Origin: Macrotrachela quadricornifera | Taxonomy: Eukaryota > Rotifera > Eurotatoria > Philodinida > Philodinidae | Direction of reading: 5' to 3' | Assembly (NCBI GenBank): GCA_022393335.1 | Contig: JAJEKB010020892.1 | Span: 1-64,000, forward strand | DNA: 64,000 nucleotides | Part shown: one piece after another, positions 3,259-58,417 of the stretch | Layout of the letters: each line of letters begins with the position of its first letter | How positions within the stretch are numbered: position 1 is the first letter of the stretch | Position numbers and translations under genes: made by a program | The notes under the pieces: model-generated | What the model saw: the letters and a program-made list of their open reading frames with translations, nothing else | Databases searched by the model: none | Told to the model about the DNA's origin: nothing

Positions 3259-4761
3259 ACTACGCTGAAATGAAATTCATATATCAATTATGAAGTTCTA
3301 ATAAGACAATAAGGAAGTACTTGGTTATCTTAAACTCTACATTCGCATTGGAAGATTTTCTGTTACAGCGACTATGAAAAACTAATAATAATCGACAAAG
3401 AAAAATCAATAGATATCTAATACTAGACACATACATTGACTATCTCATTAGCATATTCAATCGTCTTAATGGTTTATCGAGTATTGTGGCAAAAGAAGCT
3501 TTAACTTTTCGATGATGAAAATTTTATTTGACTAATCCACTTATTATGTCTGTCATTTATTTATCAAGAAAATGGATCAAACTTTGTATTTCACTTTTCA
3601 ATATTTTGACTATGAAATGTTTTGAAAATTCACTAGTGTATTAGAGTTTATACCAAAATGATCAGAACGAAAAGCTCTATCAGCTGTAAAAGTTTCATCA
3701 AATTTAGAGAAGGTCGATGTAATGGCTGGAGATTTCTGGTGGACACACCCATATTTGTTCAAGTTCAATTGACCTATTATAACATACTGTTTCCTATTCT
3801 TACATATATGAGCTAATTTTCAATGACATATTAGAAAGAGTCAACAATAACCGTCACGAATACTAATTGGTAGTTCTCTATTAGATGATTTAGTACCAAG
3901 TGCTATCTACGGTGAACAATATATTCGAACGGTATTATTGATATTTATAGAAAAAAAATAAATCTTGTTCGAGGAGTGAGGATGAACTGGGTGTTTTCTA
4001 ACTTTCTGATCGATTTTTTTGGACACTATCGAATTATCACTTATTTTTTGAGCTATGAAAACAAAAAATACAAATTCATACTATATACAAACCGATGATA
4101 CATATGTCAATAGCAAACAGTGTTTTTATACGACATCTCTCGACACTTTTTCTACCATCGTTCTCACTGCTTCAATGATCAGGTCATATTAACTGACTGA
4201 ATTTTTTCTTTCTTTCTGTCAATCGTTTATATGCTAAATACATTGATTGGAACGGGGTACGTATTGCAGAATTAATGAAGTGCAGCGCGTCCTTGAGAGC
4301 AAAAACAACCATTAGATTTTTTTCTTCTCCTTCCAGTATAAAAAAACCGTGCCTATACGAATTGTTAGTTAAAAGCGCACAGTAGTCTACCATCGTCACC
4401 CTCAAAATTATTCTTTCTTTTCATTATACACAATTCCTACATATGGCACTAGGTAATGTTATAAATCTTTTATGATGGATCAGAAAAAGCCTTATAAAAC
4501 TCTAACGCCTTTCGGAGAGTATTTGAAAAATCTTTAGTATCATTGGAAGACGCTGTTACTGGGATTAAAACAAGCTCGGTAATTTTTGTATCTAAGCAAA
4601 AAAAAAGAAACGGTAACGTCACTTTGGTTACAATCATCAAAATCCGTGAGAAAAATATAGCTGAGGAATAGAAAAGCATATTCAATTGCTCAGATTGTCG
4701 GTCAATATGATACATTATGCTGTACCCTAAAGATATTTTATTTTCAAGTTCATTTCTTTAG
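3259..4761. other. Intergenic or 5' part of the LRR gene
   Basis: No recognisable protein is encoded. Short minus-strand frames at 4184-4405 and 4470-4715 have no family resemblance. The missing first exon or exons of the LRR gene must lie here if that gene is complete, because its first visible exon starts with a split codon at 4762. Confidence 0.4.
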
Positions 4762-7700
4762 AGTCAAACTACACAAATGAAAAGCTTCAGCAACAGATTG
4801 ATGCAAGACAAGGTCTTAGCCTTCTAAACTTGGATGACCAAGGTTTGAATGATAATGATATGGAATTAATTGCACAATATCTATTGCAAGATGATACTGT
4901 AAGTCAAATTGTTTTGATTTTTGCTTATTGTTAAAAACAAAATTTCATTTATTCATCCTCAATCATTTTCTTCTAAATTGCTAAAATGAAATTCTTTAAA
5001 GAATCGATGAATAATCAAGATAAGATCAGTAGTGTCAAACTTGAAAGTTGAATTCAAGTATTCAAGTATTTGCCTATTCAACTATTCAATCAACCTAAGC
5101 TGCTCCAATGTGGCGCTGCGACGCCCTCACCCTCACCCTCACCTTCAAGATATATGGATAAGATTTATAATTGTGAGCGATCATGAAATATGTAAAATAT
5201 AAATTCAGTCCGATTGACAAAACGAAAATGTATAGCAAAAGTGTTTTCTTCTTTATCTGTCTTGTTTTTATGCAGTTGATCTTTGCGACACTTATCTTTC
5301 TTATTTATTACAGAGTGTGCGTTTTCTCATGCTGAATAACAATCATGTTGAAGCTCGTGGTGTGCAAACTATTGCTAAAGCATTACAAACGAATAAAGTG
5401 AGAAATAGATATTGTAACTACGCTTCTTACATTTCTTTTGCTCATTTTATACAGACTATAAACGTTCTCCATCTGAAAAACAATCAGATTGGAAATGAAG
5501 GTGCACAAGCTTTGGCTGAAGTATTACAACAAAATACAGTAAGAGAAAAACATTCTTTTCATCACGATCATATTTATCCTTCTTGTTCCATGTAGACATT
5601 AATAAGTCTCTATCTCGAGAACAATGGATTTGATGATGAAGGTGTACAAACTCTTGCTCAAGCATTAGAAAATAATCAAGTTACAGAAAAAAAACTGTTC
5701 TGTTTCTATCCTGTTTATCTTTCTTCTTTCACACAGACATTGATCAGCTTCCAGCTCGATAAAAATGGTGTTGAAGAACAAGGTGCACAAGTTCTTGCTC
5801 AAGCATTACTAAAAAATAAAGTAAAAGGAAAACGTTCCTGGCATTTTCATCCTATTTATCTTTCTCCTTTCATACAGACACTGATCGAACTCATGCTGAA
5901 TGAAAATGAAATTCGAGATCAAGGTGCACAAGCTCTTGCTGAATTATTACAAAAAAATACAGTGACAAAAAAAACAATCTTTTCATTTTCACCATATCTA
6001 TCTTTCTTCTTACATGCAGACACTCACCGATCTCTCTCTCGTCAACAATCAAATTCGAGATCAAGGTGCATCAGCTCTTGGTGATGCATTACAAAAGAAT
6101 AAAGTGAAGGAAAACACATTTCTCATCTCTATCCTATTCATTTGTCTTATTTCATACAGTCACTGACAACTTTCTGTTTCACAAACAACCAAATTAAAGG
6201 ACAAGGTGCACAAGCTTTTGCTAAAGCATTAGAAAAGAATACAGTAAGAAGAAAAGCATTATTTTCGTCTCTTTTGATATTTATGTACTTTACTTCATAC
6301 AGACTCTCATCAATCTCAATCTCGATAATAATCAAATTGAAGATCAAGATGCACAACATATTGGTAACGCTTTGACCAAAAATACAGTGAGACGAAACAC
6401 ATAGGCTTTTAGTCTTTCCTATATTCATCTTGTTTGTTTCATTCAGACACTCAGAGGTCTGCATATGAAACTCAATCAAATCGGCGACAAAAGTGTGCAG
6501 AATCTTGTTGAAGCATTACAAAATAATACAGTGAGAGAAAAACATTCTGTCACATTCATCCTTTATATTTCATCTAGACACTCACACGTCTCATCATCGG
6601 TAACAATCAAATTACAGAGCAAGGTGCACAAGCTCTTGCTGAACTATTACAACACAATAACGTGAGAAAAGAAACACTTTATTCATTTCCATGACATTTA
6701 TTTTTCGTATTTCATCCAGACACTCGATGATCTCCATCTCGAAAACAATCAAATTGGCGAACAAGGTGCACAGGCATTTGGTAAGGCATTAGAAAAAAAT
6801 ACAGTAAGAGAGAAACACTCTTTTTTATTGTTCGTACATTGATTGTTTTCATTTTACACAGAAACTTACTACTCTCCATCTCGAGAACAATCAAATTGGA
6901 GATGGAGGTGCACAAGCTCTTACTGAAGGATTAAAAAAGAATACAGTGAACAGAAAACATTCTTTTTCATCTTTATCCTATTGATTTTTCTTCCTTCCTA
7001 CAGACACTGACAGATCTTTATCTCGACAGCAATCAGATTGGATATCAAGGTGCGCAAGCTGTAGGTGAAGCCTTAGAAAACAACATAGTGAGAGAAAAGT
7101 GTTGTCTTTATTTTTCTCACATTTATCTCTATCATTCCATGCAGGCAGTCATTAGTCTTCATCTTGATAACAATCAAATTGGAAATCAAGGTGCACAAGC
7201 TCTAAATAAAGGATTAGAAAAGAATACGGTACGAAGTAGACAACAACGTTTTCGCCTTTGTCATATTCATCGTTCGTATTTCTTGTAGTGTCTCAAGTTG
7301 TTGTACCTCAAAAACACTCAACTTGGAGATGAGGGTGTAGCATTACTTGTTAAACTATTAGACAAGAATACAGTGAGAGAAAACTCATTGTTTTCACTTG
7401 TATTATATGTACATTTCTTATTTCATATAGACACTTACAGATCTCTGCCTCGAAAACAATCAAATCGGAGATGAAGGTGCACAAGCTCTTGCTCAAGCAT
7501 TAGAAAAGAATACAGTGACCGAAAAACACTCTTCCTCTGTATGATATTGATCTTTCTTATTTCGTACAGGGACTTTCCAATCTCAATCTCGAGAATAATC
7601 AAATTGGAGATCGAGGTGCTCAAGCTCTTGCAGAAGCATTACAGAAGAATACAGTGAGAAGAAGAGTGTTTTTTTTTGTCTTGACCATATTGATCTTTTG

Positions 7701-8031
7701 TATATCATACAGACACTCACTGGTCTCTATCTCGAGAATAATCAAATTGGAGATCGAGGTGCTCAAGCTCTTGCTCAAGCATTACAAAAGAATACAGTGA
7801 GAAGAAAACACTGATTTCGTCTCTATTATATTACACTCTTTTGTATTTCATTTAGAGACTCATATACCTTAAAATTGGAAACAATCAAATGGGAGATCAG
7901 AGTACACAAGCACTTGTTGAACTCTTAGAAAAGAATATGGTAAGAGAAAAAATACTCATTTCATTTTTATCATTTGCATCTTTTTTCTTTATTTCATACA
8001 GAACCTGCCAGACGCGTCACTTGAAGATTAA
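4762..8031 (+). CDS. RNI-type leucine-rich repeat protein, one repeat per exon (5' partial)
   Basis: Twenty-one exons can be read. The first is 4762-4898, acceptor CTTTAG and donor GTAAGT, with LRR-like LLNLDDQGLNDNDMELIA. A 415-nt intron follows. Then come 19 exons of exactly 84 nt: 5314-5397, 5455-5538, 5596-5679, 5737-5820, 5878-5961, 6020-6103, 6160-6243, 6303-6386, 6447-6530, 6578-6661, 6720-6803, 6862-6945, 7004-7087, 7145-7228, 7289-7372, 7431-7514, 7570-7653, 7713-7796 and 7856-7939. The last exon, 8002-8031, encodes NLPDASLED and a stop. Each 84-nt exon is phase 0 and encodes one 28-residue repeat, TLxxLxLxNNQIGDxGAQAL then AxALxKNT, of the ribonuclease-inhibitor/NLRC3 class. Introns between them are 47-62 nt. 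No NACHT or other effector domain is seen. About 586 residues are visible; the start codon and 5' exon were not found. The role is probably protein-protein recognition. Confidence 0.88.
4899..5313 (+). repeat. Long first LRR intron with simple-repeat insert
   Basis: This 415-nt intron is seven times longer than the other introns of the gene. It carries ATTCAA-type repeats at about 5045-5090 and a short CCCTCA (TGAGGG on the other strand) array at about 5124-5144. The ATTCAA part resembles the ends of the small element at 10718-11012. Confidence 0.55.
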
Positions 8032-12098: not shown

Positions 12099-15000
12099 TT
12101 AAAGTGAACGAAGTCTTTCAACAAGCTCAGTTGCGTCTTTCAAGGCGATATGGTTTGCAGACAATTTTGCTTGATAAATGGTAAGTGCAGTTTGGGCATA
12201 CTCAAGTGCTATTTGCTCATCACCTGTTTCCATGTATACGCGTGCCAAAGCGTAGTAAGAATGTGCAACAGAAGGATGATCGTTAGCAAATAATTGTCTT
12301 CTCAGTTCAAGTGCTTCCTGAAGAAAACGGATCGCATCTTCTCGCTGATTCAGTGCATATTTCACTAGCCCCATAGTATGTTTCGTTATAGAAATGCCTG
12401 AAAAATTGGAACGTTTGTCCTCCTTGTGTATTGCTAATGCAGCCAAAAGTAGATCGTGTGCATCCTCATATCGTTTTGCCTGCCAATAGGCGTATGCCAA
12501 CTGAGTATAATACAAAGGCATATCTGCATCATTTTTTCCTAAAATTCTGCGGAAAATGGCTACAGCTTGTTCATGAAGTCGGATAGCCTTTGACGTATCG
12601 TTCAGTTGTGAATAAGTGGCGGCGAGATCTGAAAGCGTATCAGCATAGACATAGCTAAACTGCAAGGATGATCGTTTTCGCAGCAACATAGCACGACGAA
12701 AATATTCGATAGCGTGTTGATATTTGCTCATCAAACGATATACTCGCGCCGTACAGTAGTAAACTCCTGCACGATTCGGGTCATCAAATCTCATTTGACG
12801 CAGATATCGATGAAAATGCTTTAATCCGCTTGAATAATCACTCGACATTTCGCTTAAGTATATACCAAACAGTGTAGTCGGATCAGAATAAGTAAGACTT
12901 TTCTCCACCTGTTGCGTATATTCTTGTTTTAATTCACACATTTCGGAAGATACAATCATCCCAACATACCAGACATTGTGTTGATCATCATGAATAATTT
13001 TCGTTATTACAAAAGTAGTGCCAAGACCAAAGAGTATTTCTTTCTCCTCTGGATAATTGCTTTCCGCGGATACATCGGCCACAATAAGCCCTGATGTTTG
13101 ATTCAGATCAACATCAATCTCGAATAAAACTAATTCTTGGCCATCCACCAGATGCCGACAGTCTGGGACACCTGTAGCCGGATCGATGCTAATAAACATC
13201 TTGGCAACTTCAGGGCGAAGCGATGAGGAGAAAAATCCATTCGTTCCAACCAGCATACCGATACGTAGTTTCTCAACTTCACATCGATCTATAGTAGCAC
13301 CTCGATAAACGCAAAATGGTGACTTTTGGTGGACCTTAGTAACCAAAGTAGCGTCTTCTAAACGTTTGCACAGATCCATGATATAGAAACGGTAAATATA
13401 TAGAAGCCATGGATCTTCGGTGCGCAAAGCTTCGTTAATAACGGTATGTATAAAAGATTCCTGTGTATACCAACGGGTAGCATCTTGTGGACAATAGTCG
13501 CGCTCAAATTTAGAGACTTTTGCTAACTGAGCAGCGTTATTATAATAAGCTGGATGTTTCCGACATTCGGCGATCATTTGTTTCTTAGCTCCACGTGTAT
13601 TGCAAGGCATGTAGGTAAGAAGAACTAAAACATATATAAGAAACAATAATATATGTAGTATCTTAATCGGCGACGAAGTCCTATGATATAAACTAGAATA
13701 AGTTCAAATAATACACACATACACATGTGTCATGAACCATTTTCATTTAGGAAAATTCATTTTGAGAACCTTCATCCAGAAAGTTCGTTGTTCAGGAAAA
13801 AACGAACAAATACTACCCATTATGCATAAGATTCTCTCATGCATTTTATGATTTCTTAAAACTAACTAACAACATATAATAGTTTGTAAATCACAAGCTA
13901 ATTGGATTCGTCACTTATTTTCAGTGCTATCATGATCATAGTGAGGGATGAGGAGGAAAATAGATGATTTTTCTAGCTCCATTTGTATTCAATACATGGG
14001 TAAGGATTAAGACAAAAGTCTAAAACATGAACGAAACTAGAGAGGCACTTACGAGGAAACCTCCCCAAATGACACCCTCCGTTTGAGCTCATATTTTGCC
14101 TATAGATAGGACTCATAGCGTAGATAAGAGTCCTAAAAGGATTTATTTCCATAGCCTGTTGTTGTTGGGATACTGCGTTTTTGAGGTATTAGAATAACTC
14201 ACTGTCGTGATCCCTCTCAGGGACATGAGAAAAACTCATTTTTGAATTTCAACTTCAAACTTTGTATAGAGTGAGTTCTCAATGAGAGTGGTTTTTTGTG
14301 AAAGTTTCAGTTTTCCTGAATGCTTCTAATGGCAAATAAGAACATCAAAATTTGCCTCTGCAATTGACAATAGGTTACCTCAGCGGTATCTTAGGATAGG
14401 AACAAGGAAGAGATCCCAAACTTTCACAATAAACCACTCTCATTGAGAACTCACTCTGTACAAAGTTTAAAGTCGAAATTCAAAAACGAGTTTTTCTCAT
14501 GTTCCTGAGGGGGACCACGACAGTGAGTTATTTCAATATCTCAAAAACACAGTATTGCAAGAACAACAGGCTATGGAGACAAACCCTTTTAGGGCTCTTA
14601 TCTACGCTATAAGACCTACCTATAAGCAAAAAATATGAGCCCAAATGGAGGGTGTCATCTGGGGAGGTTTCCTCGTTAGTCGGTGAATATCCCCTCGTAT
14701 TTTAGTCATAAAATGCGTCGGTCCTTCGTTAGGAAGAATAGAAGACTCATTCTGGACAAATCAATATGAATTCTGGTTCAGCCAAGTCTGTTTAGAAGAA
14801 ATAAATATTTGATGTCAGTAACAGGCTAAGCATAATAAATCCAATATTTCAAGACATACCAGTATAGGAATGACTCCATACAAATGGACCAATGTCTTCG
14901 CGCACATCTCGAAGAGACCTTCCATTTGGATGAAATGTCTTGAGTGTAGCATTAGTTGGTGGTTTTTGATCCTTTTTCAATAATTCCTGGAATTTTACGA

Positions 15001-32155: not shown

Positions 32156-32454
32156 TACCCAGGTCGAACATTACTACGGTCGTAAAGGACCATATACCGC
32201 CGTTTTCGATGACGTAAACGGTCGTAACCGGCAAAATTACGCCCTTAAACGGACCGTAAATCACCCGTTTGGTAGGGGCCGTATTACGGTCGTATGCTAC
32301 CGTGTCGTATACGGCGGAAAACGAACACCGTTTACGCAAAAATCTGTGCCGTAACACCACCGTATTCTGACGAACACGACAGTATACACTGACGTTTACG
32401 ACTGTATTTCGACGTAACCGACCGTCACAAGTCGCGGATTGCCGTAAAAGCACT

Positions 32455-32750
32455 AGGATTTCATAGGTTTCCAGTATGATTTCGCTATGATTTCATAGGA
32501 TTTGATTAGGATTTCACTATGATTTTCTTATGATTTCATAGGATTTTGCAGGATTTCATAGGACTTCAGTATGATCTCACAGGATTTCAGTATGATTTCA
32601 TAGGATTTCACTGTAATTTCATAGGATTTCACTATGATTTCACGATGATTTCATAAGATTTCACTATGATTTCATAGGATTTCACTATGATTTTGATAGA
32701 ATTTCGGTGTGATTTCAAAGGATTTCATTGGATTCGATTAGAATTCCATT
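32455..32750 (+). repeat. Tandem repeat, GATTTCATAG/GATTTCACTAT units
   Basis: About 25 imperfect copies of a 10-11-nt unit, GATTTCATAG alternating with GATTTCACTAT, often paired into a 21-nt period. No open frame or splice context suggests function. Confidence 0.85.
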
Positions 32751-45506: not shown

Positions 45507-47309
45507 TCAATTTTTCAAATAAACATGGAAAAAAATAAAAAATAGAAGTATGTATATATTGGCCACAAGTGCTGACTGCTCTGAATTGAGCACAGGATCC
45601 ACGACCAAGAGACGAATACGAGATGTTGGATAATAAATTGTCTGAGTGGCGACGATAGGATCTGCGATATCTGTAGCGATAAGATTTCCCGTATTCGGAT
45701 TGGCTGAAATCCAAGGAAAAAGAGTGCTCATCAAGGCCAATCGAATACGATGACCCTGTTGAAATGTGTGGCCAATTGCATGCAAGTTTATACGAATGAG
45801 ATAAGTCTCACCAGGCATCATAAGAACTTCTCTGTCAAAACTTTCTCGGTAACGAGTACGTAGCTGTCCAGCTGTTCTTGAGCCGATTTTGATAGAATGA
45901 CCATTTTCTGGTAGAACATCCATCAAAATGGCTATAAAATCTGTGTCCCGTGCTGTGCTCGATACATTCAGTTCAATGATAACGTCACCAATTACAGTCA
46001 ATGATTTGCTCAATGGTTGGCTCGTGTAAACTAGCATGTTTTCTTTATTCTGTGCAAGAAAGGCATTGGTATCAGCTGGAAGATCTATGGCTGGATCCAA
46101 TAAAATGGGTTTAGTAGGATCGGATATATAGCTGTCACTGGAGTAAGTTGTTGCAGATGTCCATTCTAGCGTGTTCTCATTTATTTGTCGATCACTTATT
46201 AAATACAATGATCGTTCAACAGCGTTCGATGGAGGAAAGGTAGATTCTGTCATCCATTTGTTACTTTCCATAACAAAAATCTTCGTGGCTTCCCAGTCAG
46301 GCCGAAGCCCATCCTTTAAGCACCAATCAAAAAAGGTATGTACCATTTCCTTTGCTGGCAGCATTGCGTCAGAAGTAACTGTAAATTCTCCCTGCGTCAA
46401 TTGTGGCTTTCCGCTAATAACATCATATCCTCCATGTGCACCATTTAGATGAGTATATGGCCCAACAACAAGAAAATGGTCTGCATTTTTCACTGAATGT
46501 TGTCGCGCACCATTAAATCGCCATATCGTACCTGTCATAGTAGGATCAAACCAACCTGTGAAGGCAAGAGAAGATACGTTAATACGAGTAAAGTCTTCCG
46601 CTTGAAAATCAAGTGCTTTCCAGTACGCGTCGTATGTAGGATGATCAAGAAATGTACGATAAAGTGGCAATTCTCTGCCGAGTACATATTGATCTAGAGT
46701 GCGAAGAGGACGATGTTTGAGCCACTCAGTCATATTTAATGGAGTTTGAATAGGAGGAGACGGTGGGAAGCTGCTAGTCCAGCTGAGCGCCCAGCTAACT
46801 GCAAAGGCCCCATCTAGATAAGGAGTATCCTGCATAGGCTTTCCGAGTGAAGCAGAAGGCGTTATACACGAGAGATGTGGCGGTTGTTCTTTAGCAATAT
46901 ACCATTGATTTGTTCCTGCGTAAGAATAACCTCGCATGCCTACACGACCATTAGACCAAGGTTGTTGAGCCACCCATTCGATCAGATCATAACCATCTCG
47001 TCCTTCGTGAGCAAGAAACTCCATCGTACCTTCAGAGTCTCCTGTACCTCGACTATCGGCAATAACGAACACATATCCATGTTGACTCCAATAACTTGCT
47101 TCATGACGAAAAGTTACTAGAGGACTACGACGACCATATGGAGTTAATTCAACGATTGCAGGAAAACGAAGTCCTTCTTGGTCGGATATGGAAAAGTAAT
47201 CAACAGCGAGTCTGATGTTATCCCGTAGACGAACACTCGTCGTAATGAAGTCTTGTTTTGTGATTGTGCAGTAAAAAAGAAAAATTAAAAGAAAAGAGCG
47301 TAATATCAT
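45507..47309 (-). CDS. CocE/NonD (X-Pro dipeptidyl-peptidase S15-type) hydrolase, secreted
   Basis: A single uninterrupted frame of 600 residues from the ATG at 47309. That start is chosen because it is followed by a signal-peptide-like MILRSFLLIFLFYC; an ATG at 47447 in the same frame would add 46 residues ahead of it. The S15-type alpha/beta-hydrolase domain has ADSRGTGDSEG, the nucleophile elbow GMRGYSYAG (Ser about 129), the acid residue in FTGWFDPTMTG and His in VVGPYTHLNGAHGG. The C-terminal jelly-roll X-Pro domain covers about residues 370-590 (KSLTVIGDVIIELNVSSTARDTD, HTFQQGHRIRLALMS). Such enzymes hydrolyse esters or amides of acyl substrates; the natural substrate here is unknown. 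The family is mainly bacterial and fungal. Having no intron, unlike the mannosidase, LRR and VWA genes, is consistent with horizontal origin. The gene looks intact. Confidence 0.9.
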   Translation of the reverse strand: MILRSFLLIFLFYCTITKQDFITTSVRLRDNIRLAVDYFSISDQEGLRFPAIVELTPYGRRSPLVTFRHEASYWSQHGYVFVIADSRGTGDSEGTMEFLAHEGRDGYDLIEWVAQQPWSNGRVGMRGYSYAGTNQWYIAKEQPPHLSCITPSASLGKPMQDTPYLDGAFAVSWALSWTSSFPPSPPIQTPLNMTEWLKHRPLRTLDQYVLGRELPLYRTFLDHPTYDAYWKALDFQAEDFTRINVSSLAFTGWFDPTMTGTIWRFNGARQHSVKNADHFLVVGPYTHLNGAHGGYDVISGKPQLTQGEFTVTSDAMLPAKEMVHTFFDWCLKDGLRPDWEATKIFVMESNKWMTESTFPPSNAVERSLYLISDRQINENTLEWTSATTYSSDSYISDPTKPILLDPAIDLPADTNAFLAQNKENMLVYTSQPLSKSLTVIGDVIIELNVSSTARDTDFIAILMDVLPENGHSIKIGSRTAGQLRTRYRESFDREVLMMPGETYLIRINLHAIGHTFQQGHRIRLALMSTLFPWISANPNTGNLIATDIADPIVATQTIYYPTSRIRLLVVDPVLNSEQSALVANIYILLFFIFFHVYLKN

Positions 47310-49931
47310 TGCGACAAACGAAGACAAATATGTTGTATAAATATCATATGCATGTCGATAAGAAGGAGATTTAAATAAATGACATGTGCTTGTTGATAAG
47401 AAGATTTGATAATAGGGAGAAATGATATACTCATACAACCTATGCAATGATAATTGATTATACGAGCTTATTTTTTATGAGAAAGAGAAGAAATAAGAAA
47501 TGCGATCTTTTTCATATAAAAAAAGTGGTGTCGAACGAAAAAATGCGCACCTCCATTGCACATGGACTCTTGTTAGACAAAGACAGAGGACAATATCGCA
47601 CGCTATCTCCAACAAATACACTTCAATCTCTCTCTAAAGACGATCATTTATCTGCAAAACAACATTTGTCCGTGGTAAAGATGTAGCGTATGATACTAAA
47701 ATGAGTAGAATCAGAGGTGAAGAATCTGCCACTAAAATTAAAAAATTCACTGGACACGCGCGCGCAGATTGCCATATTCTGCACATCTGAAAAATATATT
47801 GCACCGAAGGTATAACACAACAAGGCATTGAATGAGAAAGTAACCGTAACTTACATAGCGGTATCTCAATCTTCAAAAGAGAAATTTCAATTTCTCTAAA
47901 AGAAAAGGCTAATTATTCTTGTTGATGAGGAGTGCTCTGATACATTAATACTGAATCTACATGAATAAGCTAAAGGAAATTATACACAGTTGGTAGAAAA
48001 CATGTTGAGAAGGAAAGTATATGAATGGTATCGAAAAGGCAAAATGTTTGGAGAAATACCTGAAAATACAAGCAAGGAAAAGATATATGTACGTTGTATG
48101 CGTCGTGTATGCACGAAAATTAAAGCAACAGAAAGAAAAAGAAAATATAATATCAAATATTTCTCTGTTGTTTATAAATGGACAGCTTCTATTGAAATAA
48201 AGTATACAACGATGCAACAACTCAGATATGAATGTTACAGATTCCAAGAATGACCATGCAAGAAATTAGGTCTGTCTTTTCAATATTCCATTTGTTTCAA
48301 TTTTTTTCTCGGTAGACTTGTCGAAAGTTAAACGGTAAAGTGATAAAAAATAAATATTTATTAATTGGATCTAAAACTACTATTTAAATTAGTTTTCAAA
48401 AAGCATTCAGAAAACAGTTTGAGCTTTCGCCAATGCAAAATCAGTATCATATCAGAATGCTTCAGTCAATTAAAAACCAAAGATAAACGCTAGTACTTTC
48501 ACAAAAAATCTGAACAGTATCAACCATGGAAGTTGATAAAGCCCGATTCATTAGTCATCAGTCAATCCACGAAGGAACATTTCCAAGTATCGGAGCGCTT
48601 TTGAATAGGAACTTTATGTATCTTGTAGATCTTAGTAAGCTACACTTACCATGAGAATAGTTCGTGCCCATGACTTGTCTTGAGAAAAATATCGAGGTTT
48701 TAGTGAGTTTTCCCTATAGAACCCTGAACCTCGTAGCAAAGCCATAGTTGTGAATTTCGACCTGAAACTTTGTCCACATAAACACCTGGAAAGCACTATG
48801 AATATATTGATAATTACTACTTTTTTAATATTTTCTATACAACTAAAAAAGTAAGTCATTATTTCATTACTATTGGTGACTATAAAGAAAACTTATTTAA
48901 AGTATTTGTTGATAGTTTATGATAAGGATTGAGAAATGATTCAGATTGCTATTATACAATAACTAGTGAGATTTTTGGAAAAAGTTATAACCGTACAGGT
49001 CATGTTATTAACAGTTCGAACAGAATGTAGTATATTGCTTGAAGAATAAAAAAAAGTGTTGTACTAATGAATATGTCAAATAAATGTATATGTCCTGTGT
49101 TCGCTATATTTTTGTTCCTCTTCTGAAATTGTCTAGAAGCAAAACAAATGATAAATTAACATAGGTAAATCCACTAGGGTAGCAATCATTGTCAATCACA
49201 AAGACTAATAATTATTGAAGAAAAAGAAAAAAATTGGCTGGCAATTATTCGAGTTATGAATACTAACAAAATGGTAGTTACGCACAAAGCAACAAATGAT
49301 TTACTTCACATTTACATATAATATTTGGTGGCATGCTGACTGTTGAATCAAACAGAAAATGATTCTCCAATGACAGTATTCGTGTAGAGCATAATTGATA
49401 ACCTCGATCTGTATAATTCTTTCTTTACCTTAAAATGAAAATAGATTACCATATGCTCACTCAACTTCCTTTGCTTCAATTGCAAACTGATGACGAATGC
49501 AATGTATCTCTCATTGAAGGTGCTTCTCTTGTTGGATGTTATTTTTTCTTTATTACATTATATCACAACAACCTAAAAAGAATAATACAGTACATAAGCT
49601 ATATGAATCATGAATCATGCAATAAACATAGTCAATATCAATCCTTCTATCATAAAACACAATATTTAAATAATAAAATCCATTTCGAGTTTAATTCATC
49701 TAGAAATAACTGTTGCTCGGTTAACTAATAAAACATAAAAATCTCTTTTTGAATGCTTAGGATTTCGTCAATTTGCATTAGCGGTTTAGTAAGATGCAAT
49801 ACCCTTTCATATAACCTACCACACTTATGTGCCGTAAAAGTACAGGACGTGCGTTGTTTCAACCTTGAGCAACATGGGGTATAAAAGCACCAACAAACTG
49901 AGGAAAGAAAAAAATCACAAGTTTTCTTCCA
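47310..49931. other. Intergenic, no recognised gene
   Basis: Frames such as 47990-48253 (+), Lys/Arg-rich, and 49435-49728 (+) have no family resemblance and no exon context. The hydrolase promoter should lie just above 47309. Confidence 0.4.
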
Positions 49932-55834: not shown

Positions 55835-58417
55835 ATGTTATACATGATCAACTTTCGATGGTTATTTTTGCACTTTTTATTGTGGCAACTTCATTTAAAG
55901 TGTGCAGAGACAGCTTGGCCATCATCAAACGATTCAACTATACAACTATTAGGCCTTTTCCCAGATGCATCAAACACATCCACACCAACCACACTTTCTG
56001 TTCATTCTCGAGCTATGTTCAAAGCAGCAATACTTCTTTCCCAACAATACAATATCACAATAAATGGAAAATTCATTGGATGGAAAATAGTACAAACTGC
56101 TGGTAATATAATGGGTGGTCTTAGTAGTGCTTGTCGAGAAATATCTAATTCAAATATTGTTGGTATTGTGGGTCCTGCATACTCAAGAGAAGCAGAGATT
56201 ATTGCTGAATTTGGTGAAAGTATCAATATTCCTGTGATATCTTATGCTGCCACTAGTCCCGATTTATCGGACCGGAATACATATTCTACTTTTTATCGAA
56301 CCGTTTCATCCGACAAGGCAGCTGCATTAGCAATGGTAAACCTATTTATTCGATATAATTGGACATCATGTATAGTTATCTATCAAAATGATGCTTTTGG
56401 ATCTGGTGGTGCGAAAGTAATTAATGAAGCTTTTGATGATAATGATCTCAAAGTCAGTGAAATGATTATTTTCGATATTGTTTCATTAAGTGTTCGAGGT
56501 GATTTACAGACTACTTTACTTACTAGTACATCACGAGTTGTTATAGTATGGGCTGATGTCGATTATACAAATTTAATAATACAAACTGCACTGAACGCTG
56601 ATGTGCTTGGTCCACGGTTTTTATGGATATTAAGTAATAGTATTGCATTTTCTTCTTTTAATCTGACATTACAGGAAAAATTAATTGGAATATTGACTGT
56701 TGAACCCGTAACAGGAAGTGTGGTGAATGCACCTATAAATACGATATTGCGAAATGCAGCCTATAATATCTGGCAACAATATGAATCTGAATCATTGCCT
56801 GAAATAACACAGGTAGCTAATTATGCACTTTTTGCATTTGATGCAACGTGGTCATTTATCCAAGCATTACTACAATATTGTTCCACGATTTCAAATAATT
56901 CTTTGTCATGTATCTCAATTACTGATTCTGCATTTTGTTTTAATCGTTATTTAATTAATGGAGATGAATTTATCAATACTCTAAGTATGACTGCATTTCT
57001 CGGTGTATCTGGTCTTGTACAATTTTCTACTAATGTTACAGATCGAAAATATGGTAATTATTATGTGGCAAAAAACGTTCAATATGTTACTGATGGGATA
57101 GAAGCTATTCCAGTATTAGTATGGTCTGATTCTAATAGATGGGAAAAATATACATACTCGAGTGTTATTTTATGGCCTGGAAATACATTGACCTCTCCGA
57201 CTGGTTATCCATCAATATCAAATGTTAAGTTAAAAGTTGCTGTTTTTGAAGTACATCCATTTACAATGACACAAGATATTGTCGATAATTCTGGACAAAG
57301 TTATAGAAAATTAATTGGTTTTATTCCAGATCTTATTGATCTTTTAGTCAGTAGGATGAAATTTATTCCACAGATTACAGTGATATCAGCAAATAATTCT
57401 TATAATAGTTTAATTGATGCAGTAGCTAATGGTATATTTGATATAGTTGTAGCAGATGTAACAGTAACATCAGCACGAAGCGAAAGAGTCAGTTTTACAA
57501 GTTCAATATTTGATAATTCATTACGTGTTATTACTCGAAAAAGACTTGCAGAAAATACGGATTTGATGGCATTTTTAAAACCGCTATCACTGACACTTTG
57601 GGTAGTTCTCTTAGCAGCTGCTATTTGTACCGGTTTTTTAATCTGTTTATTTGAACGACAAGACAATGAAGCGTTACAAGATAGATCAATTATTGGTTCA
57701 ATTGCAATGAGCATTTGGTATTCTTTTGGTAATGTAGTCGGATATGGTGTAGATTTTGACGTAAGAACGGCTGCTGGACGTTTAGTGACGGTCAGTTTAT
57801 ATATGTTAAGTTTGGTTATAGTAGCAACATATACGGCAAATTTAGCATCTGATTTAACGGCTTTAAAAACAAAAGATATTATTTCAGGAGTTGATGATAT
57901 TAAAAATGGAAAATTATCATATAGTCGTGTTGGTATTGTTGTTAATTCATCAATTGAAGATTATTATTTACGAGAAATATCTGAAGGAATTCGAAATTTT
58001 CATCAATTAAAAACGGAACAGGATATATATACTAGTTTATTAAATAATATCATTGATGCGGCTATTATGGATGTTGGTGTTTTAGAATATGCAACGTCGA
58101 GTATTTATTGTAATTTAACTTTAGTTGGTACAGGTTTTGATCAAAGTATATTTGGTATTGTTATGCCTAAACAATGGTTATACGAAGAAGATTTAAATTT
58201 TAATATATTATCATTACGAGAATCAGGTGAACTTGATAATTTAAGAAAAAAATGGTTTCAAGGTAGTGTTTGTTCTAATTCACCTGATGTATCTACTAGT
58301 ATAGGTATTGAATCAACAAGTGGTTTATTTATCATATTTACAATTATTTTGATTCTATCATTATTATTATATATATGGGAAAAACAGCTTTACAGAAATA
58401 TTATGTTTGTACATTAG
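55835..58417 (+). CDS. Ionotropic glutamate receptor with GYG-type pore, intronless
   Basis: One frame of 860 residues. The signal peptide is at about 1-24 (FLHFLLWQLHLKCAETA). The amino-terminal periplasmic-binding-like domain covers about 35-440 (IVGIVGPAYSREAEII, NIPVISYAATSPDLSD). The ligand-binding S1 half starts near 466 (LKVAVFEVHPFTM) and contains ADVTVTSARSERVSF, in which the Arg after TSA aligns with the carboxylate-binding Arg of iGluRs. M1 is at about 580-605. The re-entrant pore loop reads SIWYSFGNVVGYGVDF, with Gly-Tyr-Gly at 636-638. M3 ends ATYTANLASDLT, the SYTANLAAFLT equivalent. S2 has AAIMDVGVLEYA, whose Asp fits the amino-group ligand. M4 is at about 828-850. It should be a plasma-membrane ligand-gated channel. 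The GYG filter suggests K+ selectivity, as reported for Adineta vaga AvGluR1. All expected parts are present. Confidence 0.93.
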   Translation: MLYMINFRWLFLHFLLWQLHLKCAETAWPSSNDSTIQLLGLFPDASNTSTPTTLSVHSRAMFKAAILLSQQYNITINGKFIGWKIVQTAGNIMGGLSSACREISNSNIVGIVGPAYSREAEIIAEFGESINIPVISYAATSPDLSDRNTYSTFYRTVSSDKAAALAMVNLFIRYNWTSCIVIYQNDAFGSGGAKVINEAFDDNDLKVSEMIIFDIVSLSVRGDLQTTLLTSTSRVVIVWADVDYTNLIIQTALNADVLGPRFLWILSNSIAFSSFNLTLQEKLIGILTVEPVTGSVVNAPINTILRNAAYNIWQQYESESLPEITQVANYALFAFDATWSFIQALLQYCSTISNNSLSCISITDSAFCFNRYLINGDEFINTLSMTAFLGVSGLVQFSTNVTDRKYGNYYVAKNVQYVTDGIEAIPVLVWSDSNRWEKYTYSSVILWPGNTLTSPTGYPSISNVKLKVAVFEVHPFTMTQDIVDNSGQSYRKLIGFIPDLIDLLVSRMKFIPQITVISANNSYNSLIDAVANGIFDIVVADVTVTSARSERVSFTSSIFDNSLRVITRKRLAENTDLMAFLKPLSLTLWVVLLAAAICTGFLICLFERQDNEALQDRSIIGSIAMSIWYSFGNVVGYGVDFDVRTAAGRLVTVSLYMLSLVIVATYTANLASDLTALKTKDIISGVDDIKNGKLSYSRVGIVVNSSIEDYYLREISEGIRNFHQLKTEQDIYTSLLNNIIDAAIMDVGVLEYATSSIYCNLTLVGTGFDQSIFGIVMPKQWLYEEDLNFNILSLRESGELDNLRKKWFQGSVCSNSPDVSTSIGIESTSGLFIIFTIILILSLLLYIWEKQLYRNIMFVH

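What the first reader, a model, noticed from the sequence alone, without database searches (positions are those of the whole stretch)
5314..7939. Nineteen consecutive 84-nt symmetric exons, each exactly one LRR
Every internal exon from 5314 to 7939 is 84 nt, phase 0 on both sides, and encodes one 28-residue RNI-type repeat. The introns are 47-62 nt. Exon borders coincide with repeat borders, so any subset of exons could be skipped or duplicated without breaking frame. That would let one locus produce many LRR solenoids of different length and surface, a splice-based recognition repertoire. The structure is seen directly; the diversification role is inference.
Basis: partly seen in the sequence, partly recalled or inferred. 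Interest (0 to 1): 0.87.

Follow-up and report, generated by a model that had tools for sequence, protein, structure and literature searches.

The report
Rotifer gene: one repeat per exon
In a likely bdelloid rotifer, nineteen consecutive predicted exons of exactly 84 bases each encode one leucine-rich repeat, and a near-identical second copy of the gene holds only fifteen, with two hybrid exons exactly where units are missing, so this repeat protein is likely varied by recombination in the DNA rather than by splicing.

Summary
In detail: 19 exons of exactly 84 nt (5314-7939), phase 0, AG/GT borders, one 28-residue RNI-type LRR each. With a tiny first exon, a linker-plus-LRR "cap" exon and a short last exon they predict a 590-aa LRR-only protein.
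The window's genome (450 Mb, likely a bdelloid related to Rotaria) holds a second copy, inverted on the same contig, with 15 such exons. Both deletions (423 and 143 bp) leave a clean hybrid exon (R2/R5, R17/R18), so the breakpoints lie inside exons, in register. That copy also has a 2.6-kb insertion and splice-site lesions. Shared exons show dN/dS 0.34.
Related caps occur at 34 (E<0.001) to 57 (E<0.5) places. Of 11 capped loci read, 6 carry 84-nt exon arrays (19, 15, 23, 9, 6, 3); 5 showed none in the DNA read.
One LRR per exon is known in vertebrate NOD/NLRC genes, Tetrahymena and brown algae. The splice-repertoire idea is untested and not favoured: the introns have ordinary bdelloid length, which favours intron definition. 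Germline unit recombination is the better-supported way this locus varies. No transcripts were available.

The parts
4337..4346 (+). TATA-like sequence about 100 nt before the start codon (possible promoter)
   Evidence: read; assignment from general knowledge, not tested
4443..4452 (+). predicted exon 1, ATGGCACTAG
   Evidence: joins in frame to exon 2; 9 of 10 bases, start codon and GT donor kept in copy B; no transcript evidence
4762..4898 (+). exon 2: linker plus N-terminal cap LRR (LTDxDMEIVAYYLL-type motif), ends in phase 0
5314..7939 (+). array of 19 exons of exactly 84 nt, one 28-residue RNI-type LRR each; starts at 5314, 5455, 5596, 5737, 5878, 6020, 6160, 6303, 6447, 6578, 6720, 6862, 7004, 7145, 7289, 7431, 7570, 7713, 7856
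   Evidence: Pfam LRR_6 E 4.1e-78 for the spliced protein; ribonuclease inhibitor structures matched by sequence
5455..5961 (+). exons R2 to R5: in copy B reduced to one hybrid exon R2/R5 (423 bp missing)
7570..7796 (+). exons R17 and R18: in copy B one hybrid exon R17/R18 (143 bp missing)
8002..8031 (+). last exon, NLPDASLED then TAA
   Evidence: 28 of 30 bases kept in copy B

Best explanation
The locus is predicted to encode an RNI-type leucine-rich-repeat protein, one 28-residue repeat per 84-nt exon, and it likely varies in repeat number and surface by unequal recombination between exon-intron units in the germline DNA, not by exon skipping. Shown: 19 in-register exons; homologous introns; a second copy (2.8% different in shared exons, 3.9% in introns) with 15 units and two single-switch hybrid exons where units are missing; purifying selection on the shared exons. 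Inferred: the protein would be a cytosolic horseshoe that binds partner proteins with its concave face, as an LRR-only member of a bdelloid family whose other members carry caspase-like, RING, B-box or ADP-ribosyltransferase domains in front of the same cap. Predicted: all exons are normally joined, because each tiny intron is recognised as a unit. The frame survives exchange because every unit has the same coding length and register. Exon borders at repeat borders are not needed for this, since both breakpoints lie inside exons.
For: Gene model and array. Units copied together with their introns. Copy B at C4385 ~625-630 kb, minus. Hybrid R2/R5: of 21 sites where R2 and R5 differ, the 17 up to nt 43 follow R2 (16) or neither (1) and the 4 from nt 58 follow R5. 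Hybrid R17/R18: of 11 sites, 8 up to nt 16 follow R17 and 3 from nt 63 follow R18; outer introns match accordingly. In copy A, R17 and R18 differ at 11 of 84 nt and R2 and R5 at 21 of 84, more than the 32 of 1,143 nt between copies A and B, so the extra units predate the split and copy B lost them. dN/dS 0.34 (bootstrap 0.17-0.65) over those 1,143 nt. Paralogues with 23, 9, 6 and 3 such exons. For 60 of 60 units from five genes the nearest relative is in the same gene, as expected from amplification within genes. Variability in this array peaks at concave positions 3, 4, 6, 8 (exact P 0.0004; 0.010 with position 9). Intron-length arguments.
Against: No transcript was seen, so neither constitutive nor alternative splicing is tested. 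Copy B looks damaged (2,600-bp insertion in R10, lost R8 acceptor, GC donor at R11, lost R12 donor), so its unit losses may be decay rather than useful variation. Only one pair of copies was resolved unit by unit. Copies A and B lie inverted on one contig and could be alleles joined by assembly error or a true duplication. Between units dN/dS at concave positions is 0.49 in the window, not above 1, and the concave excess in entropy is not significant in C4716 (P 0.64), C3734 (0.09) or C4559 (0.12). A role in immunity is by analogy only. Five of 11 capped loci read showed no 84-nt array. Short introns do not exclude skipping: three exceptional species are named in PMC6142364.
Confidence: 0.62

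Rival explanations
1. Splice-based repertoire: subsets of the 19 symmetric exons are skipped to give many solenoids from one locus.
For: All 19 exons are frame-preserving. LRR exon skipping is reported for human NLRP3 and other NLRs (PMC6642158, passages) and for brown algal ROCO genes (PMC11378527, passages). The donor of R3 is atypical, GTTACA.
Against: Introns of 47-62 nt throughout the array; such introns favour intron definition, and skipped exons go with long introns. Intron length is ordinary for bdelloids. Symmetry follows automatically from duplicating one exon-intron unit.
Confidence: 0.13
2. Ordinary tandem-repeat gene: the array is a by-product of unit duplication in an LRR gene with a fixed partner; neither splicing nor unit recombination has been selected to diversify it.
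For: Purifying selection on shared exons; no dN/dS above 1 at concave positions between units of this array; copy B is decaying; LRR-only proteins such as ribonuclease inhibitor have set partners (general knowledge; sequence match).
Against: Large family with related caps, several with the same exon unit in different number; concave positions are the most variable in this array; unit number differs between copies.
Confidence: 0.22
3. The array is a non-functional remnant (no protein made).
For: Copy B carries several lesions; no expression data.
Against: Copy A has a complete frame over 22 predicted exons with every AG/GT present; dN/dS 0.34 between copies.
Confidence: 0.03

Closest known systems
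Vertebrate NOD/NLRC LRR domains (PMC2747839, PMC6642158; passages seen)
   Same: One 28-residue RNI-type LRR per exon, frame-preserving; NLRC3 proteins are among the listed protein hits.
   Different: No NACHT here. The exon border lies five residues earlier in the repeat than in the NOD motif given in PMC2747839, so the introns are probably not at homologous positions. Introns here are 47-62 nt; those of NOD genes were not measured.
Tetrahymena 90-bp LRR exon arrays (PMC6564038; passages seen)
   Same: Tandem equal-length LRR exons, unit number variable between paralogues, unequal crossing-over proposed, introns amplified with exons.
   Different: 90 bp and phase 2 there, 84 nt and phase 0 here. 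Exchange between genes is reported there; here 60 of 60 units are closest to their own gene.
Brown algal ROCO LRR exons (PMC11378527; passages seen)
   Same: One LRR per exon, proposed diversification of a recognition surface.
   Different: 72 bp, phase 2, with ROC-COR domain and reported alternative splicing; diversifying selection reported there, not seen in the window array.
Bdelloid capped LRR proteins with effector domains (P0065 RING, P0085 caspase domain, P0111 B-box, P0011 ADP-ribosyltransferase)
   Same: Same N-terminal cap motif directly before RNI-type LRRs.
   Different: The window gene has only a four-residue lead before the linker and no effector domain. The exon structure of those genes was not seen.

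Membership tests
NOD/NLRC-type NLR | NACHT ATPase domain | tested here: not met
   three LRR models, plus SpoU_sub_bind (above its cut-off) and Succ_CoA_lig (below it) overlapping the repeats; no NACHT
NOD/NLRC-type NLR | one 28-aa LRR per exon | tested here: met
   for NOD/NLRC genes
NOD/NLRC-type NLR | exon border at the NOD position (motif XLaaNaL... starts the exon) | tested here: not met
   conserved L at exon residue 7 and N at 10; the NOD motif has them at 2 and 5
NOD/NLRC-type NLR | alternative splicing of LRR exons | not testable with these tools
   no transcripts held
Tetrahymena-type LRR exon array | 90-bp exons with phase 2 introns | tested here: not met
   84 nt, phase 0
Tetrahymena-type LRR exon array | unit number varies between related genes, with in-register recombination between units | tested here: met
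   19 vs 15 with two hybrid exons; 23, 9, 6, 3 in paralogues
Tetrahymena-type LRR exon array | exons exchanged between genes | tested here: not met
   nearest unit in own gene for 60 of 60 units; only five genes compared
Brown algal ROCO | ROC-COR domain | tested here: not met
Brown algal ROCO | diversifying selection at concave positions | tested here: inconclusive
   entropy highest there in the window array, but between-unit dN/dS 0.49; in other arrays 0.60 (C4716), 1.38 (C3734, 9 units), 0.90 (C4559, 6 units)
Bdelloid capped LRR family | cap motif joined directly to RNI-type LRRs | tested here: met
Bdelloid capped LRR family | effector domain before the cap | tested here: not met
   window gene model has MALE then linker; present in P0065, P0085, P0111, P0011

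The most novel reading that the evidence does not exclude
Bdelloid rotifers hold a large family of capped LRR receptors built from one-repeat exons, and break repair between the equal-length units deletes, fuses and re-registers repeats in frame. Each desiccation-and-repair cycle could thus mint new recognition surfaces in the germline of animals believed to lack ordinary sex.
Probability: 0.17. Interest if true: 0.85.

Novelty: new variant of a known kind. Interest (0 to 1): 0.5.

Why it matters
It adds an animal case, with a border position of its own, to the few known one-LRR-per-exon systems. It also shows at base level how such an array changes: by deletions that fuse two repeats inside their exons. 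In bdelloids, where how genomes recombine without ordinary sex is an old question, an array of equal units with a decaying sister copy would be a readout of unit loss per generation or per desiccation cycle. The capped family (34 matches at E below 0.001 and 57 up to 0.5 in this genome) offers further loci.

Tried and rejected
Splice repertoire: considered first, set aside for lack of transcripts and because of intron length. Positive selection between units: not found in the window array. In the small arrays single values exceed 1 (C3734 concave 1.38; C4559 loop and helix 4.12, all positions 1.37), but these rest on 9 and 6 units with little synonymous change, and I do not use them. Shuffling between genes: not seen in 60 units of five genes. 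Close orthologue in other species: a search with residues 5-105 gave 2 distant hits of 101 candidates. The first protein search scored only the 7,994 candidates sharing most words and listed 120 of 597 hits. I read 8 bdelloid proteins from that list; 5 of these 8 carry the cap motif, and no other protein held in the box did when one search scanned it (how many it held was not printed). A capped pair C3708/C3901 (96.7% identical over 2.7 kb around the cap) has 3 array exons in C3708 and none in the DNA read of C3901, but collinearity stops before the array, so I do not count it as a second case. At C3734 the first array exon lies almost 4 kb after the cap, so the three loci read for only about 4 kb (C4637, C4901, C4182) may have arrays further on. 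The 2,600-bp insertion in copy B has TA on both sides, 6 matching end bases and no Pfam match above threshold; its kind is unknown. Whole-genome DNA search with the gene did not complete, nor was the single-repeat search, so a genome-wide count of 84-nt arrays is missing. Two papers on bdelloid expression gave nothing on this family: one LRR protein in a table (PMC12220480, passage), and none of the LRR or NLR terms in PMC11258130, which says metazoan genes were not closely explored (passages). Structure prediction was not asked for, since the spliced protein is not one continuous frame of the window.

Full report
What is there. The 19 exons are in the sequence as described. A scan of both strands of the whole window for AG-84 nt-GT stretches that are open and carry the LRR motif gave 18 hits, all in this array. 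The 19th (7289-7372) differs at one motif residue and has proper borders. Every unit is 84 nt, phase 0, and encodes one repeat; the commonest residues are T-L-T at 1-3, L at 5 and 7, N at 10, I at 12, G-A-Q at 16-18, L at 24 and N at 27. Around the array I model exon 1 (4443-4452), a cap exon (4762-4898) and a last exon (8002-8031), which together predict 590 aa. The model is a prediction; no transcript was available. Pfam finds LRR_6 at E 4.1e-78 and no NACHT. Solved relatives by sequence include ribonuclease inhibitor and NLRPs (best 60 of 85 shown).

The array grew by copying exon plus intron. The intron cores resemble each other far more than shuffled ones (z = 29), exons are on average 68% identical, and neighbouring exons are slightly more alike than in random order (P 0.027). 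In LRR stretches of the same genome that run without introns, 0 of 180 scored units have AG..GT at their borders (loci overlap in part, rows with 3 units or fewer were not printed).

Organism. The best relative of the iGluR frame at 55835-58417 is from Rotaria sp. Silwood1, 84% identical over its full length; the next is from Adineta steineri at 66%. I take the source to be a bdelloid rotifer. The window is the start of contig C4385 in a 450-Mb assembly of 5,695 contigs.

Second copy. The cap peptide is found twice with 100% identity, both on C4385: the window and 630,008-630,121 on the minus strand; the six further matches are 39-45% identical. Much of the window is collinear with contig ~574-635 kb in inverted order, 88-97% identical outside the array, with long stretches that do not align. 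Collinearity goes on at 70.9-74 kb, but 300-310 kb did not match 322-342 kb. Homologous blocks in palindromic order on one scaffold were reported for the 2013 A. vaga assembly and not found in A. ricciae (PMC5916493, passages). Whether A and B are alleles joined in assembly or a real duplication I cannot tell.

How the copies differ. Copy B holds 15 units: R1, a hybrid R2/R5, R6-R16, a hybrid R17/R18 and R19. Each hybrid switches once: R2/R5 between nt 43 and 58, R17/R18 between nt 16 and 63 of the 84-nt exon; of the 32 informative sites, 31 fit and one (nt 4 of R2/R5) matches neither parent. Missing lengths are 423 and 143 bp, three units and one unit. Copy A's R17 and R18 differ at 11 of 84 nt and R2 and R5 at 21 of 84, while A and B differ at 32 of 1,143 nt of shared coding sequence, so the units were lost from B rather than gained in A. 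Copy B also has a 2,600-bp insertion flanked by TA near the end of R10, AT instead of AG before R8, GC instead of GT after R11, and TT instead of GT after R12; the 12 complete shared exons compared have no stop codon. It is probably losing function. Over shared coding sequence dN is 0.020, dS 0.060, ratio 0.34 (bootstrap 0.17-0.65), and eight shared introns differ by 3.9% over 463 aligned bases. The gene has therefore been under purifying selection for at least part of the time since the split.

Family. A cap peptide from C4716 finds 57 places at E up to 0.5, 34 of them below 0.001, the window and copy B being at 0.003 (73 candidates, all scored). I read DNA downstream of 11 capped loci. Six have 84-nt LRR exons in the same register: the window 19; copy B 15, of which R8 and R12 lack one splice site, R11 has a GC donor and R10 holds the insertion; C4716 23; C3734 9; C4559 6; C3708 3. 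Five (C3901, C974, C4637, C4901, C4182) show none within the 3.8 to 8.2 kb read. At C4716 the cap follows a TPR-containing frame; it also looks to me like an ADP-ribosyltransferase, but Pfam did not report that. Named bdelloid proteins put caspase, RING, B-box or ADP-ribosyltransferase domains before the same cap. For 60 of 60 units from five genes, copy B left out, the closest unit is in the same gene.

Surface. In the window array the most variable positions are 3, 4, 6 and 8 of the LxxLxLxx strand, the concave face (exact P 0.0004 among sets of non-core positions, 0.010 with position 9 added). This is not significant in the other three arrays tested (P 0.64, 0.09, 0.12). Between-unit dN/dS at the concave positions is 0.49 in the window, 0.60 in C4716, 1.38 in C3734 and 0.90 in C4559. 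That the protein recognises something is an inference.

Splicing. Exon skipping is possible in frame and reported for NLRP3 (PMC6642158) and brown algal ROCO genes (PMC11378527). Against it here: 47-62 nt introns, the normal size in bdelloids (PMC5916493); intron definition below about 250 nt (PMC9225289); and the general link between skipping and long introns (PMC6142364). PMC6142364 also names three species where skipping goes with short introns, one of them the brown alga Ectocarpus, so the argument is not decisive. If an intron were retained, only 4 of the 19 short introns would keep an open frame (translations).

Placing it. One 28-residue LRR per exon is described for NODs (PMC2747839, one passage) and for NLRC genes (PMC6642158, passages). 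The border differs by five residues, so I read the architecture as independently established or shifted, not as proof of NLR descent. Tetrahymena (90 bp, phase 2; PMC6564038) and brown algae (72 bp, phase 2; PMC11378527) are parallel cases. The listings of four searches for bdelloid, rotifer or one-LRR-per-exon papers in the held library showed no report of such arrays in rotifers; A. vaga LRR gene families are named as expanded (PMC3846280, passage). The library lacks most subscription papers.

Noticed in passing
window 112-64000 and G000:C4385 ~574-635 kb: Large inverted homologous blocks on one contig, 88-97% identical outside the LRR array; window 14.3-26.8 kb and the roughly 15 kb at the matching place do not align. 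Palindrome-like arrangement or assembly join.
   Followed up: partly
L017 5428-8027: 2,600-bp insertion with TA on both sides and 6 matching inverted end bases inside exon R10 of copy B, no Pfam match above threshold.
   Followed up: partly
L001, L002, L005, L008 (C4511, C3948, C4344, C1122): LRR frames of up to 2,716 codons without introns in the same genome, with a similar 28-residue repeat.
   Followed up: partly
window 12099-13646: Single open frame on the minus strand with TPR and ADP-ribosyltransferase matches, near the LRR gene.
   Followed up: no
G000:C3708 ~6.6 kb and G000:C3901 ~8.2 kb: Near-identical capped loci whose collinearity stops before the LRR exons; one has three array exons, the other none in the DNA read.
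   Followed up: partly
window 32451-32734: Degenerate tandem array of CACTATGATTT-like units.
   Followed up: no
window 45507-47447: Single open frame (minus strand) of an S15-type X-Pro dipeptidyl-peptidase; possibly of foreign origin, not tested.
   Followed up: no
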